From Candidatus Desantisiibacteriota bacterium (GTDB taxonomy: Bacteria; JACRDZ01), in NCBI GenBank assembly GCA_016209155.1, contig JACQWU010000196.1:1-20841 (forward strand): a stretch of DNA of 20,841 nucleotides, in the 5' to 3' direction. The notes under the pieces were generated by a model. It ran no database searches and had not been told where the DNA came from. It worked only from the letters and a program-made list of their open reading frames with translations. This document shows positions 1 to 20,023 of the stretch, piece by piece. The first letter of the stretch is position 1; each line of letters begins with the position of its first letter. The translations under genes were made by a program, and so were the position numbers.

Positions 1-1257
1 TTAATTCCGGGCGGAGTTAATAGTCCTGTAAGAGCATTTAAGGCTGTTGGCGGGAATCCTGTTATTATTAAAAGAGCGGCAGGTTCTAAAATATATGATG
101 TTGACGGGAATGAATATATTGATTATGTGCTATCATGGGGTCCCATGATATTAGGACATGCTGATAAGAAAGTTATAAATGCGGTAAAAAAGATTATAGA
201 TAAAGGAATGAGTTTTGGAGCTCCTACCGAAATTGAAAATACGCTTGCGCATCTTATAATCGAGGCTGTTCCGAGTATAGAAAAAGTAAGAATGGTTAAT
301 TCCGGTACGGAAGCCACTATGAGCGCTATACGCCTGGCAAGGGGATATACAGGCCGGAAAAAAATATTGAAATTTGACGGATGCTATCACGGACATGCTG
401 ATTCACTTCTGGTAAAAGCCGGTTCAGGAGCCGCAACGTTAGGGATTCCCGACAGTCTCGGAGTACCTTCTGAAATTGCCGCATTAACAATTACAGTTAA
501 TTATAATAACCTGCAGGAAGTAAAGAAAGCCGTAACTGGAAATAAAAATGATATAGCCGCAATAATTGTTGAACCTGTGTGCGGAAATATGGGGGTGGTT
601 TTACCGGAAGAATTTTTTTTAAAAGGATTAAGAGAGTTATGTTCTGAGGAAAAAATTGTTTTAATATTTGATGAAGTCATGACAGGATTCCGTGTTTCAT
701 ATGGCGGAGCTCAGGAAATTTTTAAAATTAAACCGGATTTGACTACACTCGGAAAAATTATAGGAGGGGGTATGCCTGTAGGAGCATATGGCGGCAAAAA
801 AGAAATAATGGATTTGGTTGCGCCTCTTGGCGGAGTATATCAGGCAGGAACTCTTTCCGGAAATCCAGCGGCAATGACAGCAGGAATAGAGACCATAAAA
901 CAGTTGAAAAATAAAAAAATATATTCTGCACTGGATGTTAAAACAAAAAAACTTTGCGATGGAATGAAAGAGCTTGCAGGAAGATATAATATCCCATTTT
1001 TTGGAGTAAGATGCGGTTCAATGTTTTGCGGTTATTTTACAGATAAGGAAGTGACAGATTATGCTTCAGCAAAAAAGTCTAATATAGAGTACTTTAAGAT
1101 TTTTTTTGCTAATATGATGGATAACGGGATTAATCTTGCCCCATCTCAATTTGAAGCAGGATTCATGTCTTTTGCTCATACTGATTCAGATATAAATAAA
1201 ACAATTGAAGCCTGTGAAAAATCTTTTAGGATTATAAAAAGAAAATTTAAATTATAA
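1..1257 (+). CDS. hemL: Glutamate-1-semialdehyde 2,1-aminomutase, 5' end cut by window edge
   Basis: This PLP enzyme converts glutamate-1-semialdehyde to 5-aminolevulinate in the C5 route of tetrapyrrole synthesis, in the cytoplasm. The reading frame is open from base 1, where it reads [18 protein letters not shown], the conserved N-terminal HemL motif. About 418 codons are present, so only about 10 residues of the usual ~427 are missing. Other hallmarks are the NSGTEA cofactor-phosphate motif, the YHGHAD segment, the FDEVMTGFR motif, and the Schiff-base lysine in [15 protein letters not shown], encoded at 754-756. The GTG at 127 is internal and is not the start. A TPR lipoprotein follows 30 bases downstream and may be co-transcribed. 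The enzyme feeds heme synthesis, which is suggestive beside a heme-rich cluster, but hemL occurs in many contexts. Identity is very secure. Confidence 0.97.
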
Positions 1258-3374: not shown

Positions 3375-5099
3375 ATGTTCAAAAAAAGCATTTCGCTAAA
3401 TTTTATTTTACTAAGTTTCTCATTATTAATTTTGTTAATTTTAGTTGTTCCTGAAATTAAACAAACAGAGGCCGCTGTTGAAATATCCGCTATTAAATTG
3501 TTAATTCCAAGAAGTAATATTGTTGTAATGAGAAAATCAGTAAGTATTATAGGTACGGTTAGTGATGAGGGTCTTAAAGGAATTAGTATTTTAATTAATA
3601 ATGAACCAAGAAAATTAGCTAAAGTAAAAAATGGAATGTTTTATGCTAATCTCTCTCTTGATCCGGGTTTAAACAAAATTACAATTAAAGGGGAAGAAAA
3701 GGATGTGGGGATTTCCACGCTGGATGTGTTTTATAAAGATGCCGGTACAAAAATTCCTCCTGACATAAATAAAATGTTCACGGTTTTTTATACACATGAT
3801 ACTGTTGAAAAAGAATCAGAATGTGACCAATGTCATGATTTTGCGGAACGAACCTTTAATAAAATGAAAAAGGGAGAAATTTCGTGCACCAGCGAACAGT
3901 GCCATAAAAGCATAAGTTCAAAAGCATATGAAGTTGTGCACGGTCCTGTCGCAACAGATGCATGCAACGCATGTCATACTCCGCATGGTTCAGTCAATAA
4001 ATTTGAGCTGGTAACAACAGGAAGTCCTTTATGTTACAGATGTCATACTGATAAAGAGGCAGCATTTGCGCAGAGTTATATACACGGACCGGTTGGCGGC
4101 GGCGACTGTATAGCCTGTCATGACCCGCATGGTTCCAAATTTAAATTTTCTTTAAGAAAATGGGGTGCGGAATTGTGTTATATGTGTCATCAGGGTAATA
4201 AAGCTGAAGGAAAGTATGTTCACGGGCCTGTGGCGGCAAATGATTGTAACGTATGTCACAATCCTCACGGTTCACCTAATCGTTATCAGCTGGAAGAAGC
4301 GGGAGCTGATTTATGTTATATGTGCCATCAGGAAAAAAAGGCGGCTTTTCAGAAAGAATTTGTACATCAACCGGTAGCCAAAGGAGAATGTTCACGCTGT
4401 CATACAGCACATTCTTCAGATAATAAATCTCAACTTTTAAAACCGAATGGTTTTGAGTTATGTAATGAGCTTTGCCATGTGGGTGAAGGTAAAAAGGGCA
4501 AAAATGTTAAAGTTCCTCATCCTCCTGTAGCTCAGGGTAAATGCACCGAATGTCACGATGCGCACGGGACAGATATAAAATATCATTTATTCAGAGCAGG
4601 GGCAGAGCTTTGCTATGAGTGTCATCAATCTATGAAAACAAGAGTACTGGCAAAATATCCGCATGGGCCGGTCATACAGGGAGATTGTGTGGCATGTCAT
4701 AATGCTCATGGTTCAGATTTTACAAAAATATTAATTAAAGAATTTCCAAAAGATTTTTATACACCTTTTGAAGTTATTAAATATGAAATATGTTTCAATT
4801 GCCATCAGAAAACAGTTGTATTGGATGAATTTACTACTACTTTGACTGATTTCAGAAACGGCAGTCAGAACCTTCATTATGCGCATGTGAACAGAAAAAA
4901 AGGTAGATCCTGCAGAGCCTGCCATGAAATGCATTCTTCTGATCAGGAAAAACATATTCGAAAGGAAATCCCTTTTAGCGAATTCTGGAGCTATTCGATT
5001 TTATTTACAAAAACTCCGACAGGCGGAAAATGTGTTGTCGGATGTCATAAACCGCGTGCTTATGATAGAGAGAATGCCATCGATAGAAAAGAATGGTAA
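3375..5099 (+). CDS. Exported multiheme cytochrome c, 16 heme motifs, Ig-like N-domain and doubled-CXXCH repeats
   Basis: A 574-residue secreted cytochrome. Residues 1-33 form a signal peptide. Residues about 35-122 look like an Ig-like/glucodextranase-B-like beta domain (VSIIGTV, then GLNKITI, then LDVFYKD). Heme attachment cysteines start at residues 150, 171, 197, 220, 245, 268, 291, 314, 339, 363, 390, 413, 438, 473, 513 and 553. Thirteen are CX2CH, two are CX3CH (363, 553) and one is CX4CH (171). From 197 to 438 they alternate at 22-27 residues in a two-heme unit of about 46-51 residues: HGPVA, CxxCHxPHGS, then LCYxCH, as in the doubled-CXXCH family. The free histidine in HGPV probably supplies a distal heme ligand. 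The AGGAG ribosome site lies before the ATG. Likely a periplasmic or surface electron carrier; the partner and final location are unknown. Confidence 0.93.
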   Translation: MFKKSISLNFILLSFSLLILLILVVPEIKQTEAAVEISAIKLLIPRSNIVVMRKSVSIIGTVSDEGLKGISILINNEPRKLAKVKNGMFYANLSLDPGLNKITIKGEEKDVGISTLDVFYKDAGTKIPPDINKMFTVFYTHDTVEKESECDQCHDFAERTFNKMKKGEISCTSEQCHKSISSKAYEVVHGPVATDACNACHTPHGSVNKFELVTTGSPLCYRCHTDKEAAFAQSYIHGPVGGGDCIACHDPHGSKFKFSLRKWGAELCYMCHQGNKAEGKYVHGPVAANDCNVCHNPHGSPNRYQLEEAGADLCYMCHQEKKAAFQKEFVHQPVAKGECSRCHTAHSSDNKSQLLKPNGFELCNELCHVGEGKKGKNVKVPHPPVAQGKCTECHDAHGTDIKYHLFRAGAELCYECHQSMKTRVLAKYPHGPVIQGDCVACHNAHGSDFTKILIKEFPKDFYTPFEVIKYEICFNCHQKTVVLDEFTTTLTDFRNGSQNLHYAHVNRKKGRSCRACHEMHSSDQEKHIRKEIPFSEFWSYSILFTKTPTGGKCVVGCHKPRAYDRENAIDRKEW

Positions 5100-5157
5100 A
5101 ACGGTTAAATAGATAATCCCGTATATCCTGAAGCATTGGAAATTAAAACATATATTA

Positions 5158-5248
5158 GGCTGAAGGCCGAAGGCTGAAGAAAGATAATAATTAGTTAAAA
5201 TATTTATACTTTACTCTAAAAGTCTTCAGTCTAAGATACTTCAGCCTT
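5158..5248. repeat. Inverted pair of short GGCTGAAG repeats
   Basis: GGCTGAAG occurs at 5158-5165 and again within AAGGCTGAAG at 5170-5179. The exact reverse complement CTTCAGCCTT stands at 5239-5248, so a 10-base perfect inverted repeat brackets about 59 AT-rich bases just before the ribosome site of the next gene. The same word recurs at 16573-16590. It looks like a small dispersed intergenic repeat rather than an operator, though a hairpin in the leader of the gene at 5270 is possible. Confidence 0.6.
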
Positions 5249-5269
5249 AGATTAAAAAAGGAGTTAAAG

Positions 5270-6613
5270 ATGGGTATGATAAATAAAAAAAATTTCTGGA
5301 CAGCAATAATTCTGCTGTTTTTGTTAAATACAGCTATTGTTCCGGCCCAGGCTTTTAATAATGTAAGAAAAGGAGAGAAAGCTCCTGGTTTTACAGCCAA
5401 TAAAATTGACGGGGTATCTTTCTCCCTGGATTCATTAATAGGGAAAAAAGCCGTTATACTTTTTTTCTGGAAGCTTGAGATATCAGGAGAGGCAAAAGAA
5501 GGCGAATCATCAGGTAAAGTTTATGATGCAAGCACTAAATGGATACAGGAAATAGCTGCTTTGCAGAAAATGAACAGCAAATATAAAACTGACGGGCTTG
5601 AGATTATTGGCGTAACAGCTCCTGTAAAATCAGTTTATGACAAACAGAATAAAAATGTCAGAAATCCTGATTTTACACAAGATGAAATTACTGCTATAAA
5701 TAAATATTTAAAAGATAATGAGATTACTTTTACTGTTATTTTAGATGAAGGGCTGAAAATATATAATGATTACGGAGTGGTTCCTTTCCCCAGCACTGCA
5801 ATTATTAATACTGAAGGTATTATTATTCATGAATTATCAAGTTATCCCACATTCGGAGGGGAAAAAATTCTGGAGGAAAATATAAAAATTGCAACCGGTC
5901 TTGTGAAACCTGCTGAAGGGAAAAAAACGGAAAAATATGTTCCAAAACCAAAAGCCTCTGAACATTATAAAAAAGCAGTGCAGTTTCGTGAAAAAGATAA
6001 AATAGATAAAACAATTGAGGAACTTAAATTAGCTGTGCAGGAAGACCCTAAATATATTGACCCTCATAAAATTCTGGCTGCTATTTACAGGGAAAAAAAA
6101 GAGACTGAAAATGCAATGATAGAACTTGCCACACTTCTTGAGCTTGAACCTGAGAATCCGATGAATCATATATTGTATGGTGATTTTTCATTGGAAAATG
6201 GAATGCCGGAAGACGCAAAAAAGGAATATGAACTGGCTATTAAAGGTGATACGACAGGGACTGAATATATCGGACGCGGGGGAGAAGCAAAAAAGAGAAT
6301 CAGGAAAATAGCCTCAGGAGATGCTTATTACGGATTGGGGATGCTGGCGGTAAAAGAAAAGAAAAAGGATGAAGCCATTGAATATTTTTTGAAAGCGCTT
6401 ACTTTTTTTGAAGGGAATACAAGTGAAGGAGATATGATTGAGCAGATGAGTAAACGTAAAGAAATTCATCCTAATCAGCCTAAAGCTCATTATGAATTAG
6501 GTATATTGTATTTGGAAAAAGGTGATGAGGATAAATCCATTAAAGAATTTAAAGAAGGTATATCATCATATCAGACTATTATAAAAAAATTATTAAAGCA
6601 AAAATGGGATTAA
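5270..6613 (+). CDS. Exported thioredoxin-fold (redoxin-like) and TPR protein lacking all cysteines
   Basis: A 447-residue protein with a signal peptide (residues 1-28, ending PAQA). Residues about 32-210 follow the AhpC/TSA-TlpA pattern: KGEKAPGFTANKIDG, LIGKKAVILFFW, LEIIGVTAP, and YGVVPFPSTAIINTEG with the fold's conserved cis-proline at 174. Where the family has WCxxC after FFW, this protein reads KLEISGE, and no cysteine occurs anywhere in the chain. It therefore cannot do thiol redox chemistry. A linker (about 212-228) leads to TPR repeats from about 229 to 432, including AIEYFLKALTFF and AHYELGILYLEKGDEDKSI. The ribosome site AAAGGAG precedes ATG 5270; a second ATG at 5276 is possible. 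It lies between two cytochromes of the same family, so a chaperone or scaffold role in their assembly is plausible but unproven. Confidence 0.85.
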   Translation: MGMINKKNFWTAIILLFLLNTAIVPAQAFNNVRKGEKAPGFTANKIDGVSFSLDSLIGKKAVILFFWKLEISGEAKEGESSGKVYDASTKWIQEIAALQKMNSKYKTDGLEIIGVTAPVKSVYDKQNKNVRNPDFTQDEITAINKYLKDNEITFTVILDEGLKIYNDYGVVPFPSTAIINTEGIIIHELSSYPTFGGEKILEENIKIATGLVKPAEGKKTEKYVPKPKASEHYKKAVQFREKDKIDKTIEELKLAVQEDPKYIDPHKILAAIYREKKETENAMIELATLLELEPENPMNHILYGDFSLENGMPEDAKKEYELAIKGDTTGTEYIGRGGEAKKRIRKIASGDAYYGLGMLAVKEKKKDEAIEYFLKALTFFEGNTSEGDMIEQMSKRKEIHPNQPKAHYELGILYLEKGDEDKSIKEFKEGISSYQTIIKKLLKQKWD

Positions 6614-6692
6614 CCAAAATGTCCTGGAAATCGGTCTTTATACCTTAAGCTGCAAGTGAATAGAGTCTAACTTTAAGGGAGATAGAGAGGAA

Positions 6693-7439
6693 ATGATGAA
6701 AAGATTGGGAAAAGCTATAATATTATTGAGTATTTTTTTCTATACTAATATTTTATTATCAGCGGAAGCGGATACTAAAATAAAACTTTTAAGTCCAACC
6801 AATATGGCTATTGTTACTCAGGAGGTAAGTGTTGTTATTGGCGAAATAAAAGGTGCGGATGCGGTTGAACTGGTAATAAATTCAAAGGATAAGCATACGC
6901 TGAAAATAGAAAAAAATACATTCTATGATAGAATTAATCTTAAGAGCGGTGAGAATAAAATAAAAATTAGTGCTTTGAATAAAGGTAAATCCATCGATGC
7001 AATAGAAGTGAAAATTTTTTATACAAAAGATATTAAAGCCAAAAATAATCCAAAAGAATATAGTTTTTTTTATTTTCATACAATGCTGGCAGAAGGGGGA
7101 GAATGTAATGAATGCCATGATTTAAAATTAAGCATTGATAAATATGAATTAAAAAAGGGGGACCGTGGATTATGTTTTAACTGTCATGATGAAAGACTTG
7201 ATCTTAAATATGTACATGGACCTGTTGCCGGAGGGGCCTGCCTATCATGTCATAATCCTCACGGCTCCGAAAATGAATTCACAATAAGATATTCAGGGGA
7301 TAAATTATGCTATTTTTGTCATGAAGAGGAAAGAATGAAAGCAGATCATCTTTCTAAATTAAAACCGGAAGATGCTAAGAAAACCTGCGAAAATTGTCAT
7401 TATGTTCATGGCGGAGATAAAGAATTTTTTATAAAATAA
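6693..7439 (+). CDS. Exported multiheme cytochrome c, 5 heme motifs, Ig-like N-domain
   Basis: A 248-residue secreted cytochrome, the short member of the three-paralog set. It has a signal peptide (about 1-24, ending LLSAEA), then an Ig-like beta domain (about 27-112: KIKLLSPTNMAIVTQ, VSVVIGEI, GENKIKI, IEVKIFYTKD). Five CX2CH motifs start at residues 138, 161, 183, 206 and 232. The two-heme unit KYVHGPVAGGACLSCHNPHG followed by LCYFCH matches the repeat of the 16-heme protein closely, and the phrase around the first heme (FYFHT, then ECNECH) also matches its FYTHD/ECDQCH. AGAGAGGAA precedes the ATG at 6693; a second ATG follows directly at 6696. It probably shares a transcript with the genes at 5270 and 7586, since no clear terminator separates them. 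Confidence 0.92.
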   Translation: MMKRLGKAIILLSIFFYTNILLSAEADTKIKLLSPTNMAIVTQEVSVVIGEIKGADAVELVINSKDKHTLKIEKNTFYDRINLKSGENKIKISALNKGKSIDAIEVKIFYTKDIKAKNNPKEYSFFYFHTMLAEGGECNECHDLKLSIDKYELKKGDRGLCFNCHDERLDLKYVHGPVAGGACLSCHNPHGSENEFTIRYSGDKLCYFCHEEERMKADHLSKLKPEDAKKTCENCHYVHGGDKEFFIK

Positions 7440-7585
7440 TTATTTTACTTCCTCTCTGCCATAATGATAGATATTAAACTACAGAAGCACATAGACGCAT
7501 AGAAAAAATTATGGACATATATATATTAAAGCATAGTTGAACCGGAGTGAAAATTCTATCAAATTTTCGGAGAATAATTTAAAAA

Positions 7586-8761
7586 ATGAAAAAAAAGCTG
7601 TTTATCCTGGCATTGTTTTTTATTTTTTTTAAAATTAATAAACTATATTGCTTAGAAAATGATAAAGTAAAGGTTTTTGAACCTAAAGTTGATAAGATGC
7701 TGGTTACGAGAAGTTCAGTAATAATTGTCGGAGAACGATACGATAAAAATATTAAAATAATAAAAATAAGTATAAACAGTAATGAATATGAAGAGAAGCT
7801 TACAAGCGATGTTTTTCATATACTGGTTAAACTTTTTCCCGGCGAAAATAACATTACTATCTGTTACAGTTCAAAAATATGTTATAATATTGCTATTTAT
7901 TATAAAAAAGAAAGAGATTTTTCTGAAGTCGCAAAACAATTCCCTAAATATATTTTTCATATGGAAAAGACAAAAGAGTTTTGTGAAAAATGCCATATAA
8001 TTGATGCAAATAAAGGCAAAAAAAATGTTTGTTATATATACTGCCACAAAAATATCATAGAAAAAAAAGTTACAAAAGCTCATGGACCGGTAGGAGAAGG
8101 GGCATGTCTTGCATGCCATGATCCTGATGGTGTAAGCTCCGGTTATGCCCCGCTTATATCAGGAGGTAAACTTTGTTATACCTGCCACCAAAGTGTTATA
8201 GAAGGTAAATATCCTCATGCCGCGGCAAAAATGGCGGATTGCATGGGCTGCCATGATCCTCATGGAAGTGAATTCCCTTTTTTTATAAAAGAGAGTGAGA
8301 AAAGTGTTTGTTTTAGATGCCATACTGATATGGGTGAGCGGTCTGTCACCATTTATAATTCAACAAGAACAAAAATTTTGCGTACGGAAGTATATACCGT
8401 AAAATATCAGCATGTGCCTGTAAAAGAAGGAAATTGTTTAAAGTGCCATGATCCGCATGTTTCAGATTTTGGCAGAGCGCATTTGCGAAAAAGAACATCA
8501 GTTTTATGCAAAAGCAGAGAATGTCATCTTCCTATAATCGATAAATTTGATAATCATTTTCATGTTTATGATGTCATTCCGGCATCCGGAGCCCCGGTTA
8601 AATTGCCAAAAGATTTAAGAAAAGATGAATATAACAATGTAGTTTGCTACAGTTGTCATGATCCGCATGGAAGCAACTATAAAGGATTCTTGAAAAAACC
8701 TTACGATCAAATATGTGTATGGTGTCATGATAATATGCCAAAAGTGCAAAAACTATTATGA
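7586..8761 (+). CDS. Exported multiheme cytochrome c, 10 heme motifs, Ig-like N-domain
   Basis: A 391-residue secreted cytochrome, third of the paralog set. It has a signal peptide (about 1-22) and an Ig-like beta domain (about 27-108) carrying two non-heme cysteines (93 and 99). Heme motifs start at residues 133, 149, 174, 197, 219, 242, 284, 308, 354 and 377. Eight are CX2CH; 149 is CX3CH (CYIYCH) and 308 is CX4CH (CKSRECH). The HGPVGEGACLACHDP and CMGCHDPHGS units are of the doubled-CXXCH type, but longer inserts after residues 246 and 314 break the regular spacing. The ribosome site is a modest CGGAG at 7568-7572, 13 bases from the ATG and just after a small GAAAATT/AATTTTC hairpin (7549-7568). 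Role as for its paralogs: an electron-transfer protein outside the inner membrane. Confidence 0.92.
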   Translation: MKKKLFILALFFIFFKINKLYCLENDKVKVFEPKVDKMLVTRSSVIIVGERYDKNIKIIKISINSNEYEEKLTSDVFHILVKLFPGENNITICYSSKICYNIAIYYKKERDFSEVAKQFPKYIFHMEKTKEFCEKCHIIDANKGKKNVCYIYCHKNIIEKKVTKAHGPVGEGACLACHDPDGVSSGYAPLISGGKLCYTCHQSVIEGKYPHAAAKMADCMGCHDPHGSEFPFFIKESEKSVCFRCHTDMGERSVTIYNSTRTKILRTEVYTVKYQHVPVKEGNCLKCHDPHVSDFGRAHLRKRTSVLCKSRECHLPIIDKFDNHFHVYDVIPASGAPVKLPKDLRKDEYNNVVCYSCHDPHGSNYKGFLKKPYDQICVWCHDNMPKVQKLL

Positions 8762-9008: not shown

Positions 9009-9425
9009 ATGAAAGAGCGATTAGAAAAAGGCAGTAAGAAAAAACATCCGGCAATAGCTGCACTGGCATCGGTAATATTACCTGGTGCCGGACAGGCTTA
9101 TAATCGAGAGATGACACGATCCCTGGTTTTAGTTGTCATTGCCATTAGTATGATAGCATGGTTTGTTAAAATGCAAATTAGTTACAATAGAGCATATGAA
9201 TCGATGATGAAATTGGAAGGGGTCAGAGAAATTGCAATGGTGTATGCGCGTGCTCAAGTTCCTTATACTCTTATTCCGCTGGCTCTGTATTTAGGATTGG
9301 TTGTTTTCAGCGCTTATGATGCTTATGTTTTTGCTGCATATATATTAAAAACAGTAATGATAAAACCAAAAGAAGATGAGGATGAAACAAAAAAGAAAGA
9401 AGATGAGGCTAAGAAGAAAAGTTGA
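9009..9425 (+). CDS. Small inner-membrane protein with GAGQxYN motif (TM2/DUF5683-like), unknown function
   Basis: A 138-residue membrane protein. Residues about 14-32 read AALASVILPGAGQAYNRE; this LPG-x-GQ-x-YN motif at the first helix is seen in TM2-type and DUF5683-like small membrane proteins. Two further hydrophobic segments lie at about 38-53 and 88-116. The tail (about 119-138) is a lysine/glutamate-rich run, probably cytoplasmic. The start is set by AAAGGAGGTAGGG before ATG 9009. It opens the operon read from the promoter at 8879 and stops 12 bases before the NHL gene. The function is unknown; its position next to exported propeller and cytochrome genes suggests a membrane-side role in their export or anchoring. 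Confidence 0.75.
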   Translation: MKERLEKGSKKKHPAIAALASVILPGAGQAYNREMTRSLVLVVIAISMIAWFVKMQISYNRAYESMMKLEGVREIAMVYARAQVPYTLIPLALYLGLVVFSAYDAYVFAAYILKTVMIKPKEDEDETKKKEDEAKKKS

Positions 9426-9437
9426 TCTGAGGAATGA

Positions 9438-10460
9438 ATGTATTTAATAAAAAAAATATACAAAGAAAAATATATTAAAAAAAATACCGGATTATTTTTA
9501 ATATATTTTATAACAATATTATTACAATATTTTTTTTCTGTTCAAGTAAAAGCAGAATTTAAAAAAGGGCAGCTTCAGGTCGCAACACGTAAAGTTCAAC
9601 TGCTTACACAGCTTAGAGCTGAACAATGCGGAGCACCAAGAGCTTTTGACAACCCCCGCGGAATTTATGATGACAATGATAATGAGGTTTTATATGTTAT
9701 TGCAAAACCAAGCGGCCCTGTATATAAATTTGATTTACGAAATGATTATAAATTTTTAGAGGAAATAGGAACAGGTACTGCGTTCAGCAATGATTTGATG
9801 GATATTCGTGTTAGTGAGAATGGCGATATTTATGTTGTGGACGCAAGGAAGAATCAGATTTTTATTTTTAATGCGGAAGGTAATCTTAAACAGATAATTA
9901 ACGCAAAAGATAATCGCAAGAAAAAAGAGAAGGAATTAGGAATTGTTTCTATTGATTTTAATAATAAAGGAGATATTTTTTTAAGCGATAGAGGCGGACA
10001 AGGTGTTCAGGTTTTAGACGCAGAAGGTAATTACCTGTATCAAATTGTTAAAGTATCATCAGGAAAAGAAGAATTTGGATTTCCCAGTATTTCACAGCTA
10101 AAGCTAAACAGTAATGATGATATATATGTCCTGGATAATTTGATGTATAAAGTAATTAAATTTACACCAAAAGGGAAGACACTTCTTATTTTTGGAGGAA
10201 GAGGTGATGCTGCAGGTAAATTTATTGATGCCACAGGAATGAATATTGATAATAAAGATAGAATTTATATTGTCGAACAGTTAACCGGAACAATACAAGT
10301 TTTTGATCGTGATGGCAATTTTCTTCACGTTCTTGTCAATGAAAATGAAGGAAGGCTTGTTTTAGATTCTCCTTCGAGAATAGCATTGGATAAGACAGGC
10401 AGAATCTATGTAATGGAACCAATGAGGGATAGACTGACAGTTTTAAAATCTATTGATTAA
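9438..10460 (+). CDS. Exported NHL-repeat (six-bladed beta-propeller-like) protein
   Basis: A 340-residue protein with an unusually long basic N-region, a hydrophobic core (about 18-34) and a likely signal cleavage after VKA near residue 39. From about 60 on it is built of repeated strands with the NHL signature: NGDIYVVDARKNQIFIFNAEG, then KGDIFLSDRGGQGVQVLD, NDDIYVLDN, KDRIYIVEQLTGTIQVFDRDG and TGRIYVMEP, each preceded by a hydrophobic strand. About six blades fit. NHL propellers bind proteins or ligands and are often found next to surface cytochrome genes in metal-reducing bacteria. The CTGAGGA ribosome site supports ATG 9438. A second, damaged copy follows 29 bases later. Binding to the large cytochrome encoded downstream is an inference from position. 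Confidence 0.87.
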   Translation: MYLIKKIYKEKYIKKNTGLFLIYFITILLQYFFSVQVKAEFKKGQLQVATRKVQLLTQLRAEQCGAPRAFDNPRGIYDDNDNEVLYVIAKPSGPVYKFDLRNDYKFLEEIGTGTAFSNDLMDIRVSENGDIYVVDARKNQIFIFNAEGNLKQIINAKDNRKKKEKELGIVSIDFNNKGDIFLSDRGGQGVQVLDAEGNYLYQIVKVSSGKEEFGFPSISQLKLNSNDDIYVLDNLMYKVIKFTPKGKTLLIFGGRGDAAGKFIDATGMNIDNKDRIYIVEQLTGTIQVFDRDGNFLHVLVNENEGRLVLDSPSRIALDKTGRIYVMEPMRDRLTVLKSID

Positions 10461-10489: not shown

Positions 10490-11334
10490 ATGGGAAAAAA
10501 TTTCGGAAAAGCGTATCGAAAATGGATAGTATGGGTTCTGGGAATACTGACTATTTCAACAAATATTTTTTTTACAGCTGTTCTTTATGCTGAAGAGCCT
10601 GCTGCACCTGCAATAGGTACTCGAAAAGTAAAATTATTAAAACGGATAAACGGGCAGGATCAAGGTGCTCCGGCAAGTTGTAATAATCCATTTACTGTCT
10701 ATGTTGATAAGGAGAGAAATCTATTGTATATAGTAAGAACAGGTAATGGTCCTGTTGATAGATTTGACATAGTTGACAATTATAAATATGTAGGTACAAT
10801 AGCAGATAGTCCTGATATAAAAATGTCATATGTACTTGATGTCACAACGGACAGGAATGGAAATATTTATGTGCTTGACGCAAGACGGAATAAAATATAT
10901 GTTTTTGATAATCAGGGAGTATTAAAACAAACAATAATTCCAAGAGATAATCGTCCGGATGCCAGTGCTTTGAGTATTGTCGGTATTTCATTCAGCAGTA
11001 AGGGGGATATGTATCTTGCGGATAAAGGCGGTTCAGGTGTTCAGGTGCTTGATTGGGAACAATTTTTGGCGGAAGAGGCGATATAGCCGGAAAATTTATT
11101 GATGCAGTAACTATTGGTATTGACAGTAAAGATCGTGTTTACGTGCTTGAAGCTTCAACAGGTACAGTGCAGGTTTTTGACAAAGACGGCAATTTTCTTC
11201 ATATTTTAACAGATGAAAATGGCGGAAGATTAGTACTTCTTGCTCCTGAGCGAATGGCATTCGATGCAAAGGGAAACATGTATGTTTTAGAAAGATTACA
11301 CAGCAGAGTTTCTGTTTTTCAGTTTATAGATTAA
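10490..11334 (+). pseudogene. Second NHL beta-propeller gene, broken by internal deletion and frameshift
   Basis: A paralog of the gene at 9438 with its own GGAGG ribosome site and signal peptide (cleavage near LYAEEP). It matches the intact copy from TRKVKLL through KGGSGVQVLD. At about 11051-11055 the frame then runs into a stop at 11084-11086. The homologous remainder resumes one base out of frame: TIFGGRGDIAGKFIDA, then DRVYVLE, GTVQVFDKDGNFLHIL, and the end VFQFID at 11334. Set against the intact copy, about 53 residues are missing at the junction, about one propeller blade, so roughly 160 bases were lost. The 3' part has no ribosome site and only a TTG at 11053, so it is unlikely to be made separately. 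The alternative is an assembly or sequencing error over a repeated stretch. Confidence 0.8.
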
Positions 11335-11513: not shown

Positions 11514-14500
11514 ATGAGAAGTAAAATGAGTAGCTATTTGTATGTTTTTTTGTTACTAATAACAGCATTAGTATTGTATCCGATTAGTTTTATAGAAGCA
11601 ACAGGTATTGTTGACTCAGGACACAATATGTTACGTCAGAGCAATTTTACTGATACAGAGAGTGGAAAAGCGGGAGTTTGTTCTTTCTGTCATATACCGC
11701 ATTCTACTGGCGCAGGCATGGTCACAACTTCTCAACCTGACGGAGTTGTGAGAATCGTAACAGGAGCAGTTGGTGTTATATGTAGTAGTTGTCATGGAAG
11801 AACGATCGGTAGAGGATCAGCTCCATATTTTGCCGATGCTAACAATCCATTTATTTTTTCCGGTGCGCAATTTAATCACCCTCTAATGGATAATGATTCA
11901 GATTTTTATGGTACTGATCAATTAGCCGGTTATACTACACTTACCTCAGTAAACACTGGAACAAAATTTGGCGGAACAAAACAGTGGTTATCAGGTTGGC
12001 CTGCAACTGGTAGAGCAAGAAGAGGTCTTCAGAATATGGGTGATACAACTATGATAGAATGTACATCCTGTCATAATGTGCATTCAGTAACCCCCGGACT
12101 CTTGTTTGATCAAGATGGATCAAATAATGCAGGACTATTTAACGGTAAAGGTTCAAGCAGAAAATTCTTGCGCGCATTACCATTTGACACAATGGCTGCA
12201 GTTGGTAATGAACTGGAAAACAGACCGGATCAAAATGATCTACATCCTAAACAGGTGTTTTGCGAATACTGTCATATTGGAAGAGCACGAATGGGTACAG
12301 GTCCATGGAATACAACAACAATTGACGGTAGCCTTTTCTCAACCCATCCAATTGGTATACCTGGTCCTGGCGTAACTGATAATGGCAGAAATAATCGTAA
12401 AATAATTGATGATAATAAAGGTTGGGATAGCAGCTTGGTTATTGATCCTATGTTTAAAACAGGTGATACGACTATGGTTCAAGACGGCGGGAGAACAGGT
12501 CATACAGGGTTCATTAATGCAGGTGCAGGTAACGGTGACAGAACTGGAATGGGTTTTGGAACTACCAGATTAACCGGTGTCATAATATGTCAGTCATGTC
12601 ATCGGCCGCACAGCACAAGGGCTAACGCATTACCGGGCCAAAGTCACGATGGTGCTATTATTTCAGATCCGCAGTTGATGTTTGATTCTATAAGACAGGA
12701 TTTATTAGTTGAAACAAACAGAGCAAGCGATGGTTATAATCGATTGTGCGAAAATTGTCATTCATACAGACCATTTTTAGCAGTTAGAGCAACTAATAAT
12801 CTTACGGGTGATTCTCCAACTATGGTTGGACATCCATTAAAACATCATAAATATGGTGCAGGCAGTTATCCAGCTACTGTAGATTGGGTTATTGCAAGTG
12901 CGAGCGCATCAGCAACATGTCAGGATGATGATGATACAGGCGGAGATTCAATAACTATTCCTACAAACTGGCCAACAGGCGGAACATCAAATTTACAAAA
13001 TCAAGTAGTATGTTTGTCATGTCATGAAGTACATGGTGCAAAACCTCGCACTAAATTATTAAGAGCAGTGCCACTGTGCGTTGAATGTCATGACGGACCA
13101 ATTAAGAAATTGGGAATTACTCATCCTGTTCAGGTTGGACTTGCAAGTCCGGATGGCGGAACATGGCCTGATCAGGCTTCATTCTCTTTGTTTACACCAC
13201 CACAGTATGATACAGGATCAACCTATGATATAATTAGAAGTCCGGAAAAAATGTATCCTACTCTTACTTATGCAGTAAATTCCGGGTATGCTACATTTAA
13301 ATCAATTATGGTTGCTAATAGTGGTCTTGGGAATGGTGGTACTTTTGCAGTCAGAATAGATTGCGGAACATGTCATGATTATATTAACGGAAATATTCAT
13401 TATGATATTGCACGCAGACGTGATCCTCAAGGAGAAGTTAATTCTATATCTTTAGCTCGTTATGATACAGCAACAACTCCTGTATATGCCGCACGCAGAC
13501 ATAGACACAGACCACAACCTAACGCAGGTACAGGAAACATCGAAGATCCAAATGCTAATTCAGAAATATGTGTAGCATGTCATACTCTGGATAACTTTGG
13601 ATACAGGGATGATGAGACAATTGTAAATCGTGAAAATGTTGCTCAAACAGGTAACGAAGGTGAAGATAATGGACAATCAGCAAATCCATCACCCTGGATT
13701 AAGGAATATAGCATTAATCAGACAGGTAAATGGTTAGCTGGTGTTGTGTTTTTTGCTGATGGTAACCCAACAGAACGGGCTACTACCGGTACAACAAACC
13801 TGATGGAACCTGAAGCTAATTCCGGACTTAGCGCAAGACTCGGAACACATGCCGCTGGAGTTCGTGTTACACAGGATGGAAGTCAGGGAACAGGTAAAAA
13901 ATCAAGATTGACATGGGTTTATGTTGGAAGATGGGGTGATACTACAGGAACAGCCAAAGAAGATCCTCTATATGCAGGTTCAGGAACAGGTGATCCATGT
14001 AGAAAAGCCTTCACTGGAAAGTATTCAAAATGGGGACCTGCAATTGATAATCTTGGTCCAGTTAATACTGTAAGAGAAGCAGCAAGAGGCAGTGGTAATG
14101 TTATATGTCAATCATGTCATATTCCTCATTATGCTGCAGCAGGATTAGTTGAGTATAATTCAGGTTCTATTAATAAAGAAGCTTCACCTCATAGTGCATT
14201 ATTATATGCAACTCAGGCAGAATCTTTCTTATGCCGAAACTGTCATGATCAGGGCGGCGGAGTTGTTCATCCGTTTAATCAGCCTACACAAGCTAAATAT
14301 ATCGGGAATAGAGATTTAGTTGATGATGGACATCTTGACTGGTATAATAGTACAGCTTATGTTGGCGGTGCACGCGGTATGCGTCGTTCTGATAAAGAGC
14401 ATATAATGGAATTAACAAGAGAAGGTGAAACACGCCGAGTATCTGATAGTACAGCTCCATTTTATTTACGCGGCGGTACTTTACCTGCTGAATGGGGAAC

Positions 14501-14861
14501 TACATATTTGGATGCAGGCGGTTATAGATGGGGAGTTAATATGGCTCATGGACCTGCAAAACCAGCAAATTATCCTCGGTCAGGCGGCAGCTTGAATAAT
14601 GGAGTTGGTGTAGCTTTACCGGGATCAGCCGTTGATACAACTTTTGCCGGTGGTTTTAGTGTAATGGTTTGTGATTCCTGCCATGCTCCGCATGCAGCCG
14701 GTACAACTATGGGTACATATATTCTTGAAGGTCAGGATTCAACTGTTCCAAAAATTGGATCTTCTAACAAAGCTGATTATCCATTTGATCATGGTAATGG
14801 TAAAGCACAGCCTTCAAGACCAAATGATGCTCCAACTTGTATCTTATGTCATATTCAATAG
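11514..14861 (+). CDS. Giant exported multiheme cytochrome c, 14 heme motifs in seven pairs
   Basis: A 1115-residue secreted protein with a signal peptide (about 1-30) and 14 CX2CH motifs. Cysteines start at residues 56, 90, 183, 250, 359, 412, 500, 522, 617, 686, 865, 907, 1053 and 1109; two others (469, 829) are not in heme motifs. The motifs fall into seven pairs. The first member usually reads CxxCH then a dipeptide and His (IPHS, NVHS, RPHS, EVHG, IPHY, APHA); the second is a plain CxxCH. One pair (500/522) has the same 22-23 residue spacing as the compact cytochromes; the others are stretched by inserts rich in Gly, Thr, Asn and Asp. The last motif is only two residues from the C-terminus. 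AAAGGAGGAG precedes the ATG. Density is about one heme per 80 residues, which suggests a large surface-exposed electron-transfer protein. No close named relative was recognised. Confidence 0.93.
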   Translation: MRSKMSSYLYVFLLLITALVLYPISFIEATGIVDSGHNMLRQSNFTDTESGKAGVCSFCHIPHSTGAGMVTTSQPDGVVRIVTGAVGVICSSCHGRTIGRGSAPYFADANNPFIFSGAQFNHPLMDNDSDFYGTDQLAGYTTLTSVNTGTKFGGTKQWLSGWPATGRARRGLQNMGDTTMIECTSCHNVHSVTPGLLFDQDGSNNAGLFNGKGSSRKFLRALPFDTMAAVGNELENRPDQNDLHPKQVFCEYCHIGRARMGTGPWNTTTIDGSLFSTHPIGIPGPGVTDNGRNNRKIIDDNKGWDSSLVIDPMFKTGDTTMVQDGGRTGHTGFINAGAGNGDRTGMGFGTTRLTGVIICQSCHRPHSTRANALPGQSHDGAIISDPQLMFDSIRQDLLVETNRASDGYNRLCENCHSYRPFLAVRATNNLTGDSPTMVGHPLKHHKYGAGSYPATVDWVIASASASATCQDDDDTGGDSITIPTNWPTGGTSNLQNQVVCLSCHEVHGAKPRTKLLRAVPLCVECHDGPIKKLGITHPVQVGLASPDGGTWPDQASFSLFTPPQYDTGSTYDIIRSPEKMYPTLTYAVNSGYATFKSIMVANSGLGNGGTFAVRIDCGTCHDYINGNIHYDIARRRDPQGEVNSISLARYDTATTPVYAARRHRHRPQPNAGTGNIEDPNANSEICVACHTLDNFGYRDDETIVNRENVAQTGNEGEDNGQSANPSPWIKEYSINQTGKWLAGVVFFADGNPTERATTGTTNLMEPEANSGLSARLGTHAAGVRVTQDGSQGTGKKSRLTWVYVGRWGDTTGTAKEDPLYAGSGTGDPCRKAFTGKYSKWGPAIDNLGPVNTVREAARGSGNVICQSCHIPHYAAAGLVEYNSGSINKEASPHSALLYATQAESFLCRNCHDQGGGVVHPFNQPTQAKYIGNRDLVDDGHLDWYNSTAYVGGARGMRRSDKEHIMELTREGETRRVSDSTAPFYLRGGTLPAEWGTTYLDAGGYRWGVNMAHGPAKPANYPRSGGSLNNGVGVALPGSAVDTTFAGGFSVMVCDSCHAPHAAGTTMGTYILEGQDSTVPKIGSSNKADYPFDHGNGKAQPSRPNDAPTCILCHIQ

Positions 14862-14941: not shown

Positions 14942-15063
14942 CTTTAAAAAAATAATTCATTATAGATTATTCAAATGGTTTTGCGGTTGATTTATTTAAA
15001 CTAAAAGGAGTTTTTCAGGGAAAGATATACCTTTATAATTTAAAGGTGAAAGGAGAAATTACA

Positions 15064-16566
15064 GTGGCAAGAAACAGAAAATATAGAATAAATATAGTGT
15101 TCATTATAGGAGTTATAGGATTAATTTCACTTAAGAGTATTTCAGCTGAAGAAGTTTTTATGCCTAACATGCATATGCAACTGGGCTGTGAGACATGCCA
15201 TCAGACTCCGGCTGAAGTTGGTGTGGACACTAGAGAAACCGTAAAGCTAACATCTCCTCAAAATGATGTTATTGCTTTATGTGATCCTTGCCATACAAAT
15301 CAGGAAGCACACCCTGTTGCGGTTAACCCAAAGGATACAAATATGATTGTTCCTGATCATCTTCCTTTGGGACTTAAAGGAACTCCTTCAGAAGGCAAAA
15401 TTATTTGTACAACCTGTCATGATATTCACGCGGAATTTTCAAGCGGTAATACACAGAAGATAGAATTGTGCAAGGATTGTCATGGTGCAGATCTTTTGAA
15501 ACGGTCACCTCATAAGGGTGATGAAAAATCCTGTTCCTTCTGTCATGGCGCGGATCCAAAAAAGCAGGCTCAGGAAGGTGCTACTACAATTAAATTGGAA
15601 ATAGGTTCTTTATGTAATTTTTGCCATGAAAATGAATTATCGCCTCATTTTTTAAAATTTTCAAGTTTATTTTCAGATGTTGATTTAAAGGATGCTTTAA
15701 AGAAGATGACTTTACCATTATCCTCAAGCAAAAAATTAACATGCGTAACCTGTCATAATCCGCATGGGAGTGAAAATCCTAAAAAACATTATTTAAGAGA
15801 AGAATTTGTATCTTTAGGCGGAAAATCTAATAAAATTAATCCTCATTGGACAGATACTTTTTGTACTTCCTGTCATGATAAAACAGGTACGCCTCAAGAG
15901 ACTACTTTTAAATTTAATAATAATCTGGATGAATCCTGCTTATGGTGTCATAAAGGACAGGAAGCTGCTGAGCTTCATCCATATGGTATCCCTGCAAAAG
16001 ACAGTAAATTCACAAAGATTAATAAAGATAAAATGAAAATAGTGAAAGATACTATTTCATGTATTACATGCCATGGTAAAGATTGTGAAAAGAAAAAGGC
16101 AACAGTCGCGAAAAATTTTCTGCGCGGCGGTCCGTATGTTGAAAGAAATGATTTATGCTTTAACTGTCATATAAAAGAAGTATTTAAAAAAATAAATCCT
16201 CATAGACAGAAGGACCCTCAGGGTAAAATTAATTATGATGTATGTACTGATTGTCATGTAGGCGTACCAGATGAAAATAAGAAGGAAAATCTGGCGCTAA
16301 AAGGCAATGAAGTTTTCTTATGTTTGCGATGTCATGCGGACAGACCTCATCCCGGGACAAACGTTAAAACAGGTTTAGGGGTAAATCATATTGTGGTGCC
16401 GCGTGAAATTCCAAATAAAATGGCAGTTCCAAAAGATGTGCCTTTAAGCAAAAAAGGCAGTCTTATGTGCAGTTCATGCCATCCAAGTCATTTATCCGGT
16501 GTAACTAAAAAAGAGTCTAAACGGCTTATGTCTAATGAATGCACAGTGTGTCATGTTGGAATATAA
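15064..16566 (+). CDS. Exported multiheme cytochrome c, 15 heme motifs
   Basis: A 500-residue secreted cytochrome when started at GTG 15064. The AAAGGAG ribosome site at 15049-15055 lies inside the longer frame that could start at GTG 15046, so 15064 is preferred. A signal peptide (about 1-28, ending SISA) is followed almost at once by the first heme; there is no Ig-like domain. Fifteen CX2CH motifs start at residues 42, 73, 115, 136, 157, 184, 227, 267, 292, 333, 365, 394, 420, 469 and 493. CTTCHDIH and CVTCHNPHGS recall the doubled-CXXCH family, but spacing is irregular. Pro-rich stretches resembling VPDHLPLGLKG and VPKDVPLSKKG precede the third and the fourteenth hemes, a hint of an internal duplication. 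It is probably a periplasmic electron-transfer protein, and its transcript ends at the hairpin at 16617-16656. Confidence 0.92.
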   Translation: MARNRKYRINIVFIIGVIGLISLKSISAEEVFMPNMHMQLGCETCHQTPAEVGVDTRETVKLTSPQNDVIALCDPCHTNQEAHPVAVNPKDTNMIVPDHLPLGLKGTPSEGKIICTTCHDIHAEFSSGNTQKIELCKDCHGADLLKRSPHKGDEKSCSFCHGADPKKQAQEGATTIKLEIGSLCNFCHENELSPHFLKFSSLFSDVDLKDALKKMTLPLSSSKKLTCVTCHNPHGSENPKKHYLREEFVSLGGKSNKINPHWTDTFCTSCHDKTGTPQETTFKFNNNLDESCLWCHKGQEAAELHPYGIPAKDSKFTKINKDKMKIVKDTISCITCHGKDCEKKKATVAKNFLRGGPYVERNDLCFNCHIKEVFKKINPHRQKDPQGKINYDVCTDCHVGVPDENKKENLALKGNEVFLCLRCHADRPHPGTNVKTGLGVNHIVVPREIPNKMAVPKDVPLSKKGSLMCSSCHPSHLSGVTKKESKRLMSNECTVCHVGI

Positions 16567-16692: not shown

Positions 16693-17610
16693 ATGAATAA
16701 GTTTATTAAATTATTTAATATTTTTTTGATTTTATTTTTATTCACCGGATGTACGCAAAGTCAAAGACAAATTAGTGAACGTGAAAAAGACAAAGAGATT
16801 CAAAAAGGTATGGCAAAAATGATTTCAAGAGAATTTCTTGCCGCAAAAGAAATATTCTCAAAAATAATAGTTGATTTCCCTGATTATAAAGAAGCGCATT
16901 ATTATCTTGGTTTAACGAATGTTGAATTAAAAAAACTGGATGAAACTTATATTAATTTTAGAACTGTATTGGAATTAGATCCTGAATATGATTTAGGGAT
17001 AATGATGGAAATATTTTATATAAGATTCACATATTATAATAAAATGGACTATCCAATGGCGATAAGGGAGATAAATAAATTTTCCAGATTATATCCAAAA
17101 CATCCCAAAAATGCTGAATTCTTATTATGGATTGCCGATGGATATAGAAATAAAGGTGAGTTTGATGAGGCGCTAAAAAGTTACAGGAAACTTATTAATT
17201 CAACACCTGAGGGCAATGAATTTCGTAAAACAGCTGTTGAAATGGCAAAATTCATTGAAAGTAATTCTGATTTTAACCGTGAACCTTTAAAGCTTTTTGC
17301 ACAGGCTAAAGCTAAGCATACTCCTGACGATGCTCTGGAAATTTTCAGGACAATTTTAGAGGATTATCCAAAAGCAAGAATTATTCCTCTGGTAAAACTG
17401 GAAATTGCTCTTTGTTTTGATCATGGGCGCATGAATTTATTTGAGAGCGCCGCAGTATATTATAAAGCTTTAATTAAGGAATATCCTGACAGTGAATATG
17501 CGATAGTAGCTAAAAAAAATTATGAAAGAATTGAGTCGATATTCGGACAAAAAGATAAAATTTTCAGCGATACGCATAATATAATGAAGAAAAAAGTCAA
17601 AGGGAAATAG
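16693..17610 (+). CDS. TPR-repeat lipoprotein (BamD/YfiO-like architecture)
   Basis: A 305-residue lipoprotein: the signal ends in the lipobox LFTGC with the lipidated cysteine at residue 20. The mature part is helical throughout with repeated TPR-like units: AAKEIFSKIIVDFPDYKEAH, YLGLTNVELKKLDETYINF, FDEALKSYRKLINSTPEG, DALEIFRTILEDYPKARI and AAVYYKALIKEYPDSEYAI. The recurring FPDY/YPDSE words recall BamD-type outer-membrane TPR lipoproteins, but BamD is shorter (about 245 residues) and the match is not specific. The C-terminus is basic. GGGGGA precedes the ATG at 16693. The terminator before it implies its own promoter or readthrough. A role as an outer-membrane scaffold, perhaps for cytochrome assembly, is inferred from position only. 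Confidence 0.83.
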   Translation: MNKFIKLFNIFLILFLFTGCTQSQRQISEREKDKEIQKGMAKMISREFLAAKEIFSKIIVDFPDYKEAHYYLGLTNVELKKLDETYINFRTVLELDPEYDLGIMMEIFYIRFTYYNKMDYPMAIREINKFSRLYPKHPKNAEFLLWIADGYRNKGEFDEALKSYRKLINSTPEGNEFRKTAVEMAKFIESNSDFNREPLKLFAQAKAKHTPDDALEIFRTILEDYPKARIIPLVKLEIALCFDHGRMNLFESAAVYYKALIKEYPDSEYAIVAKKNYERIESIFGQKDKIFSDTHNIMKKKVKGK

Positions 17611-17654: not shown

Positions 17655-20000
17655 TTAATTGCTTTCCATTTCCCATATACCGCAGGGGCAGATTCCGGCA
17701 CAGAAACCGCAGCCAATACATTTATTGTCATCAACTATAAATTTTATATTACCGTCTGGTTCTTCAATGCGTCTTATTGCCTGAAAGTAGCAGGTTTCTT
17801 CACATAATTTACAGTCTCTGCATAATCCGCATGAGGCACATCTCAAAGCTTCTTTACCCGGGTCGAACTCATTTTCACGGCATGGCGAGTAATATTCCGT
17901 ATGCAAATTTGCGATTGGAATCAACTTTTCTTTTTTTTCTATAATATCATCAAGTCCGAGGTCAGGTTTTGAAAGAATTTTATGTATTGCCCCGGCGGCT
18001 TTTATTCCCTGTCCGATTGCATCAGTGATAAGTCCGGGTTTTACCGCATCACCTATTGCGAAAACATTTAAGTCTGAAGTGCGGTAAATAGCATCAACTT
18101 TTATCCAGCCTTTTTCCGCATGTATTTCACGCGGAATAAAATCCAGTATAGGAGTTTCCCCGATTGATATAAAAACAGCATCAGCAGTAAGTGATGTTCC
18201 ATCAGTGAAATTTATTTTTTTATTTTTGTTATCATAGGATTCCGCGGTTTTAGGATATATGATCTGTGTTCCGAGTTTTTTTGCCATTGTCTGTTCTTTG
18301 CCAAAGCTTGCCGGAGGCTGAATATCAACTGCAATTACGGATAATGCCCCGCACGCATACGCCTGACATGCAGCATCCATCCCGACATTTCCTGCCCCGA
18401 TTATCACTATTTTTTTCCCCTTAAGATCAGGAGCTGATCCTGAATTTACATTTTTTAAGAAATCAATAGCAGGAATAATATGTTCTGAGCCCGGGAATTT
18501 TAATAAACGCGGTTTATGCGCTCCGCATGCAATCACAACTATATCATGAGTTTCTTTTATTTCTTTGAATTTTTTTTCATCTATCTTTGATTTAACATAT
18601 ATATTTACACCTGTTTTTTTAAAGCGATCCAGTTCTGTTTTAAATACTTTTTGAGGTAATCTGTCTCTCGGGATACAGAATTCTATTTTACCTCCTATTT
18701 TATCCTGTGATTCATAAAGATCTACTTTATGGCCTTTAAGTCTTAATTGCCAGGCACAGGACATGCCTCCGGGGCCGCTCCCTATTACAGCGATTTTATA
18801 ATTTGTGTCCGGTAAAATTTTTGGAACTTCGGTTTCGAGACTGCATCTGCCCATGGCGCTAATATCAAGGGGTCTGTCTATTGATGCTCTTGTACAATTT
18901 TCCATGCAGATATTAGGGCAAACATATCCGCATACTGAACCGGGGAATGGAGTATATTGTAATACGAGTTCCATAGCCTCTTTTAATTTACCCTGCCTGA
19001 TAAGCTGCATTCTTTTGTGTGAAGGTATTCCCGAAGGGCAATTATAAGCGCACGGAGGCAGGTATTTTTCATTGTTCCACACGGGTTTAAATCTGCGGTT
19101 TTGTCCGGTTGTAATAATCGGCAGTATTGAACGGTCACCTTCAATCAGGTCACCGAAAATACCTCCCTGACCAACTTCTTTATCCCATACATTATTATGA
19201 AAGTCTTTTATTGAAGATTTTTTTATTTTACTTTTAGTCCGTTCATCGGGAGTGAGCGCAATTAGTTTTTTCCAGTCTTCTTTTGAGGTTGTAAGTTCAG
19301 AATAATATGCGGTTCGAGCAATTGCTTCAAGATATAATTTCATGTTTAAAAGAAGCCATTCCCAATCCTGAGGCGACAGTTCAACCAGCTTTACATCTTT
19401 TTCACTGTAACCTTCTATTTTTCCGCGGAAATAAATTTCTCCTCCAACCATACCCACACATGGTCTTGCACCCAGTATATTATCCGGATTACGCGGATTT
19501 ATACCGCAAATAACAGCAGTGCCGCCGGCTTTGAATTCCGCAAAAGAATCACCCACATCGCGTAAATACCAGGACTCGAGTGCCGGAAATCTGGGATTGC
19601 GTTTGGTCATAGTATCACACCTTGCGCCGCCGCCGCCCTGCACATATAAAATTCCCTGCGCACCCGCATTATGTGCACCGTTTGATACATCACCAAGTAC
19701 AGTTATTTTTGCTCCGCAGTTAATCCATCCCGCATCGTCAGATAAAGATCCATTAACAATAATTTCAGTCCCTTCCATTCCCATACTTCCGATGCGCTGA
19801 CCCGGAGAGCCCTCAATAATAATTTTTATTTTTTCATTATGAGGCCATATACGTCCCCCGATGCCATGTTGTCCATCAGCATATACCGTAATTTCACGAG
19901 CGCCTTTTTTAATTTCATCTTGAATCTGTTGTTCCAGCTCTTGTGATGATATCCGGATACCGTTTATATTTCCTTTTATGACTATTTTATTTTTAGACAT
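17655..20000 (-). CDS. Glutamate-synthase-type oxidoreductase: GXGXG domain fused to GltD-like FAD/NAD(P)/Fe-S subunit
   Basis: A 781-residue cytoplasmic protein. Residues about 1-240 are a GXGXG beta-helix as at the C-terminus of the glutamate synthase large chain (GQHGIGGRIWP, GMEGTEIIVNG, GAHNAGAQGILYVQGGGGARC). Residues about 317-390 are the GltD N-terminal Fe-S domain (Cys 317, 321, 357, 361, 365, 369). An FAD fold follows (GSGPGG, 407-412), then an NAD(P) fold (GAGNVG, 535-540), and VFAIGD (646-651) completes the FAD site. The end has a cysteine-rich motif (721, 724, 727, 730, 733, 737) and a ferredoxin-like motif (761, 764, 767, 771). It would pass electrons from NAD(P)H to the FMN subunit encoded just upstream, making glutamate from 2-oxoglutarate and glutamine-derived ammonia. 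The ribosome site AGGAT is weak. Methylamine-glutamate methyltransferase-type complexes share the GXGXG and FMN parts, so the substrate is not fully certain. Confidence 0.9.
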   Translation of the reverse strand: MSKNKIVIKGNINGIRISSQELEQQIQDEIKKGAREITVYADGQHGIGGRIWPHNEKIKIIIEGSPGQRIGSMGMEGTEIIVNGSLSDDAGWINCGAKITVLGDVSNGAHNAGAQGILYVQGGGGARCDTMTKRNPRFPALESWYLRDVGDSFAEFKAGGTAVICGINPRNPDNILGARPCVGMVGGEIYFRGKIEGYSEKDVKLVELSPQDWEWLLLNMKLYLEAIARTAYYSELTTSKEDWKKLIALTPDERTKSKIKKSSIKDFHNNVWDKEVGQGGIFGDLIEGDRSILPIITTGQNRRFKPVWNNEKYLPPCAYNCPSGIPSHKRMQLIRQGKLKEAMELVLQYTPFPGSVCGYVCPNICMENCTRASIDRPLDISAMGRCSLETEVPKILPDTNYKIAVIGSGPGGMSCAWQLRLKGHKVDLYESQDKIGGKIEFCIPRDRLPQKVFKTELDRFKKTGVNIYVKSKIDEKKFKEIKETHDIVVIACGAHKPRLLKFPGSEHIIPAIDFLKNVNSGSAPDLKGKKIVIIGAGNVGMDAACQAYACGALSVIAVDIQPPASFGKEQTMAKKLGTQIIYPKTAESYDNKNKKINFTDGTSLTADAVFISIGETPILDFIPREIHAEKGWIKVDAIYRTSDLNVFAIGDAVKPGLITDAIGQGIKAAGAIHKILSKPDLGLDDIIEKKEKLIPIANLHTEYYSPCRENEFDPGKEALRCASCGLCRDCKLCEETCYFQAIRRIEEPDGNIKFIVDDNKCIGCGFCAGICPCGIWEMESN

Positions 20001-20023
20001 TTTTTTATCCTATTAAATAAAAT

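What the first reader, a model, noticed from the sequence alone, without database searches (positions are those of the whole stretch)
3375..8761. Three paralogous cytochromes differing mainly in number of heme repeats
The genes at 3375, 6693 and 7586 share signal peptide, Ig-like beta domain and an identical lead-in to the first heme (F-x-H...CxxCH), but carry 16, 5 and 10 heme sites. Copy number of a roughly 46-51 residue two-heme unit seems to set the length, as if the family tunes a heme wire by adding or losing units.
Basis: partly seen in the sequence, partly recalled or inferred. Interest (0 to 1): 0.7.

Follow-up and report, generated by a model that had tools for sequence, protein, structure and literature searches.

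The report
Ig-headed multiheme cytochromes, ancient paralogues
Three neighbouring genes make secreted electron-carrying proteins with the same front end but 16, 5 and 10 hemes; those numbers are old and fixed in each gene's lineage, although distant relatives of the largest one do lengthen and shorten in steps of two hemes.

Summary
A (3375-5099), B (6693-7439) and C (7586-8761) carry 16, 5 and 10 heme sites once CX3CH/CX4CH sites are counted, and their N-terminal Ig-like domains are homologous. "Length tuning by adding or losing units" is only partly supported. The operon recurs in the three other genomes held for this phylum: B=5 and C=10 in all four; A=16 positions, one last site having lost a Cys. 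In a unit tree 58 of 60 units are nearest to the same position in an orthologue and none to another unit of their own protein, so the duplications are ancient. A and C are homologous through their first two units, then diverge; only A has a distinctive four-heme C-terminal cap. That cap defines a broad DmsE/MtrA-related family (21 genomes outside the phylum) in which length really varies: 9, 10, 11, 15 (mode), 16, 21, 22, 23 hemes, mostly in two-heme steps, including 15 versus 11 within one genus. The 15/16-heme forms usually sit beside a TPR-ResA-like gene without a CxxC site, often WSxxS. Likely role: envelope electron wires with different docking heads. Stacking was not testable (AlphaFold model failed). 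Variable-length repeat cytochromes are already known (PCC3), so this is a new variant of a known kind.

The parts
3375..5099 (+). Gene A, 574 aa: signal peptide, Ig-like domain, lead-in heme, 15-heme core; 16 heme sites
3477..3815 (+). A: Ig-like (glucodextranase-B-like) N-terminal domain, aa 35-147
3822..3836 (+). A: lead-in heme 1 (CDQCH), outside the 15-heme core
3885..5048 (+). A: 15-heme core = CX4CH site + five two-heme units + four-heme cap
4650..5078 (+). A: conserved four-heme C-terminal cap (spacings 35-40-40, last site CVVGCH) that defines a wide family
5270..6613 (+). TPR protein with a ResA/AhpC-TSA-like thioredoxin-fold domain and no cysteine; partner gene beside 15/16-heme cap genes
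6693..7439 (+). Gene B, 248 aa: Ig-like domain + 5 hemes
6762..7094 (+). B: Ig-like domain, aa 24-134
7586..8761 (+). Gene C, 391 aa: Ig-like domain + 10 hemes (8 CXXCH, CX3CH, CX4CH)
7649..7978 (+). C: Ig-like domain, aa 22-131
9009..9425 (+). Small membrane protein (DUF5683-like), same operon order in G001 and G003
9438..10460 (+). NHL beta-propeller protein of the conserved operon
11514..14861 (+). 14-heme cytochrome, 1115 aa, conserved operon member
15046..16566 (+). 15-heme cytochrome, 506 aa, conserved operon member
16693..17610 (+). TPR lipoprotein at the end of the conserved operon

Best explanation
A, B and C are ancient paralogues in a conserved multi-cytochrome operon: exported proteins with an Ig-like docking head followed by doubled-CXXCH heme chains. 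A is a DmsE/MtrA-related wire (head + lead-in heme + 15-heme core ending in a fixed four-heme cap); C shares A's head and first two two-heme units and then diverges; B is a five-heme short form. Their heme numbers were set before the phylum radiated and have been kept, so they are division of labour rather than ongoing tuning. Over longer times the cap family does change length by gaining or losing whole two-heme units and swaps its head (Ig, NHL propeller, TPR). Inferred, not shown: the hemes form a continuous electron path, and the operon moves electrons across the envelope to or from the cell surface; the adjacent TPR-thioredoxin-fold protein without active-site cysteines probably helps assemble or hold these cytochromes.
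For: Shown: heme counts; N-domain homology and fold; operon and heme numbers conserved in three other genomes; position-wise unit clustering 58/60, own-protein 0/60, and A2+C2 as one clade 98/98; Ig+5-heme and Ig+10-heme genes in other families and genera; cap family in 25 of 386 genomes, 21 outside the phylum; core formula CX4CH + n x 2 + 4 fitting totals 9, 11, 15, 21, 23; 15-versus-11 orthologues in one genus beside a 91% identical upstream gene; MtrA similarity E 2e-18. Inferred: conduction from the low residue-per-heme ratio (25-27 in the heme region), which the literature links to wires (PMC5566968).
Against: No structure of the heme part, so contact between hemes is unproven. No MtrB/PioB porin in the four genomes and none recognised in the window, so passage across an outer membrane by the MtrAB scheme is not supported. 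B's and C's heme regions beyond unit 2 align poorly with A, so common descent of all their units is not proven. The cap tree is poorly resolved.
Confidence: 0.72

Rival explanations
1. One reading: within this locus the family tunes wire length by recent gain and loss of two-heme units.
For: Same head, different counts; unit-number change is real in the wider cap family.
Against: No unit is nearest to another unit of its own protein (0/60); B and C counts constant across the phylum and A's site positions kept; B and C lack the cap.
Confidence: 0.1
2. The three proteins are not one family of wires: unrelated cytochrome chains were each fused to the same Ig-like secretion or docking domain (domain shuffling), so only the head is homologous.
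For: C's units 3-5 and B's chain are not specifically closest to A's; heads are swapped elsewhere (NHL and TPR fusions of the same core).
Against: A2 and C2 form one clade (98/98) and A and C share the noncanonical second heme and lead-in heme; B's unit matches A's units at about 50% identity.
Confidence: 0.2
3. Periplasmic electron store rather than wire: many-heme proteins buffer electrons and pass them to a separate surface system.
For: No porin recognised nearby; A, B, C have signal peptides without a lipobox.
Against: The operon also holds a very large 14-heme protein and NHL propellers, as surface electron-transfer clusters do (Uet); charge storage does not need a conserved cap and fixed register.
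Confidence: 0.2

Closest known systems
MtrA / DmsE family decaheme cytochromes (TIGR03508; PDB 6r2q chain A)
   Same: Doubled-CXXCH heme chain; A matches 6r2q_A at E 2e-18 and the DmsE model at 155 bits; the cap aligns with the C-terminal end of the DmsE model and, weakly (E 0.003), of 6r2q_A. That 6r2q chain A is MtrA is from my own knowledge; the file labels it otherwise.
   Different: 16, 5, 10 hemes instead of 10; Ig head; an extra last heme (CX3CH); below the DmsE cut-off; no MtrB found.
PCC3 multiheme cytochromes of iron oxidisers (PMC5566968, PMC10734462)
   Same: Repeat-built cytochromes whose heme number varies between relatives (10-35 extracellular; 21, 24, 27 periplasmic), modelled as long linear wires.
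   Different: PCC3 comes with a porin and a five-helix inner-membrane protein, not seen here; sequence relationship was not tested.
Uet undecaheme electron-transfer cluster (described in PMC10734462)
   Same: An 11-heme doubled-CXXCH cytochrome with NHL-repeat proteins; some cap-family members have 11 hemes.
   Different: No Uet sequence was available for comparison; Uet has triheme proteins, PPIase and a porin.
Ext outer-membrane conduits of Geobacter (PMC6148476)
   Same: Operon of several multiheme cytochromes, including 5- and 12-heme members.
   Different: Those are built around an integral outer-membrane protein; no Ig heads or TPR-thioredoxin partner in the passages read.

Membership tests
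Paired_CXXCH_1 (PF09699) cytochromes | Pfam match above gathering score 20.6 | tested here: met
   A 261.7, B 89.1, C 123.2 bits
DmsE/MtrA decaheme family (TIGR03508) | NCBIfam score above 192.2 | tested here: not met
   A 155.2, B 63.9, C 83.5 bits; relative, not member
DmsE/MtrA decaheme family (TIGR03508) | Ten hemes in a chain of about 300 residues | tested here: not met
   16, 5 and 10 sites with an added Ig domain; only C has ten
MtrAB/MtoAB/PioAB conduit | Partner porin MtrB/PioB (PF11854) | tested here: not met
   No match in G000-G003; G000 is 79% complete and the control match in that search was below the family cut-off
GSU2203 decaheme family (NF041028) | NCBIfam score above 325 | tested here: not met
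   A 131, B 55.5, C 64.9 bits
Glucodextranase domain B / Ig-like (PF09136) | Pfam score above 27 or same fold | tested here: inconclusive
   A 24.6 and B 26.6 bits, just under the cut-off; C model Z 8.1 to 1ug9, rmsd 2.1 over 79 residues
PCC3 | Porin plus five-helix inner-membrane protein in the cluster | tested here: inconclusive
   None recognised among the window's ORFs; no porin profile other than PF11854 and one Myxococcota protein was searched

The most novel reading that the evidence does not exclude
A widespread, unnamed cytochrome family builds electron wires from three interchangeable parts: a swappable docking head (Ig, NHL propeller, TPR), a variable number of two-heme units, and a fixed four-heme cap with a CX3CH terminal heme. 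Its 15/16-heme forms depend on a dedicated TPR-thioredoxin-fold partner whose CxxC has become WSxxS or been lost, acting as a cysteine-free chaperone for a client with dozens of cysteines.
Probability: 0.35. Interest if true: 0.6.

Novelty: new variant of a known kind. Interest (0 to 1): 0.42.

Why it matters
The 15-versus-11 heme orthologues in one genus, next to a 91% identical upstream gene, are a natural pair for measuring how wire length affects electron transfer. The cap and the TPR-thioredoxin partner without a CxxC site are usable markers for finding such systems in uncultured bacteria.

Tried and rejected
AlphaFold of A on six sequences failed (pLDDT 34), and of C only the Ig domain is usable, so stacking was not tested. 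MtrB/PioB search was empty, and a 690-aa protein of unknown family from L011 found no relative in seven genomes, without a positive control. PDB sequence searches with the 14- and 15-heme operon proteins were empty. Literature searches found no paper describing this cap or the partner gene, but many papers are not held.

Full report
What is there. The window is one whole contig (G000:C128) of a 3.08 Mb draft genome, 79% complete. A (3375-5099, 574 aa) has 13 CXXCH plus CX4CH at residue 171 and CX3CH at 363 and 553; B (6693-7439, 248 aa) has 5 CXXCH; C (7586-8761, 391 aa) has 8 CXXCH plus CX3CH at 149 and CX4CH at 308. In alignments of four orthologues all motif histidines are invariant, and invariant non-motif histidines number 17, 5 and 10, which fits bis-histidine ligation of almost every heme, noncanonical sites included (one of C's is in the Ig domain).

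The heads are homologous. The segments upstream of heme 1, which contain no heme motif, give hhalign E-values of 3e-10 (A/B), 2.5e-11 (A/C) and 1e-9 (B/C); 100 column shuffles per pair never scored above 18.4 against 57-66 for the real pairs. Pfam places A and B just under the cut-off of glucodextranase domain B. The C model is confident only there (block means of about 50-80 pLDDT) and matches glucodextranase 1ug9 at Z 8.1.

The numbers are old. Only three other genomes of the phylum are held, in two further families. In all three the operon order A, TPR-redoxin, B, C, (small membrane protein, not listed in G002), NHL, 14-heme, 15-heme, TPR is kept. B has 5 and C has 10 sites in all four; A has 16 positions in all four, although heme 2 is CX4CH in two genomes and CX6CH in the other two, and the last site of G002 has lost its first cysteine. 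A second C-like gene in the same genome (L066 4305-5594) also has 10 sites with the same noncanonical types. In a tree of 60 units, 58 are nearest to the same position in an orthologue, none to another unit of their own protein; A2 and C2 form one clade (98/98). The tree has few columns, so deeper forks are not trusted.

A belongs to a broad cap family. A's last four hemes (spacings 35, 40, 40; FRNG..NLH..HVN..KGR.CRACHE.H; final C-x-x-G-C-H) recur in paralogues of the same genome and elsewhere. A profile found them in 25 of 386 genomes, 21 outside the phylum. The cap matches the C-terminal part of the DmsE model and, weakly, of MtrA, and adds one more heme. Totals are 9, 10, 11, 15, 16, 21, 22 and 23; 15 is the mode, and most totals equal one first site plus two-heme units plus four. 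A is this 15-heme core with an Ig head and one lead-in heme; the same 16-heme Ig form occurs in another family (L109).

Length does change there. L117 (15 hemes) and L119 (11 hemes) come from one genus; the alignment shows a clean in-frame absence of four hemes, and the gene upstream is 91% identical while the cytochromes are 52% identical. In the 23-heme protein of G002 two adjacent units are 72% identical, more than to any other unit. Parsimony needs at least 13 changes of total on the cap tree, which is poorly resolved.

The partner gene. A TPR protein with a ResA/AhpC-TSA-like domain lies beside 19 of 26 cap genes with 15 or 16 hemes and 2 of 12 with other totals (Fisher p 0.0017, not corrected for relatedness). 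The window's copy has no cysteine, and homologues in several other families read WSxxS where ResA has WCxxC. A cysteine-free, redox-dead assembly factor is my inference.

Function. Variable-length repeat cytochromes are published: PCC3 members range from 10 to 35 hemes and model as linear wires (PMC5566968, PMC10734462). The principle is therefore not new; the cap family, its heads and its partner gene were not found described in the held papers, which is weak evidence.

Noticed in passing
window 5270-6613; L105 6706-7929, L107 11328-12728, L108 9611-10720, L110 9758-10879, L111 8952-10049, L112 2913-4085: TPR proteins with a ResA-like thioredoxin-fold domain beside multiheme genes have no CxxC; several different families read W-S-x-x-S at that place, and the window's copy has no cysteine at all.
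   Followed up: partly
L061 14829-16541 and L063 15766-17415, heme 2 of A: The second heme site of A is CX6CH (CVNPEEGCH, CINPADGCH) in two genomes and CX4CH in the other two: an unusual heme-binding spacing is possible.
   Followed up: no
window 10490-11334: A second NHL protein seems split between two overlapping frames (198 aa and 93 aa): a frameshift in the genome or an assembly error; the other genomes have one intact NHL gene here.
   Followed up: no
L064 3392-6812; L073 6731-10072: The same 15-heme core is fused to an NHL beta propeller (shown by Pfam for L064), with its own TPR-thioredoxin gene directly upstream: a head swap of the A type.
   Followed up: partly
L067 3-1229: A capped cytochrome whose N-terminus looks like TPR repeats (11 hemes, cut by the contig end).
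   Followed up: no
L062 2678-4468: In G002 the last heme site of A has lost its first cysteine (GVVGCH).
   Followed up: no
L117 6942-7310 versus L119 9776-10144: The gene upstream of the cytochrome is 91% identical between two species of one genus while the cytochrome is 52% identical and four hemes shorter: very fast cytochrome evolution.
   Followed up: partly
window 127-1257: hemL (glutamate-1-semialdehyde aminomutase, heme synthesis) lies upstream of the cytochrome operon, and a gene with the same N-terminus lies at the same place in G001 (L061 18342-19646).
   Followed up: no
window 17655-20791, minus strand: Glutamate-synthase-like proteins encoded as separate pieces (781 aa with a GltD-like part; 255 aa of the large-subunit synthase domain, cut by the contig end).
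   Followed up: no
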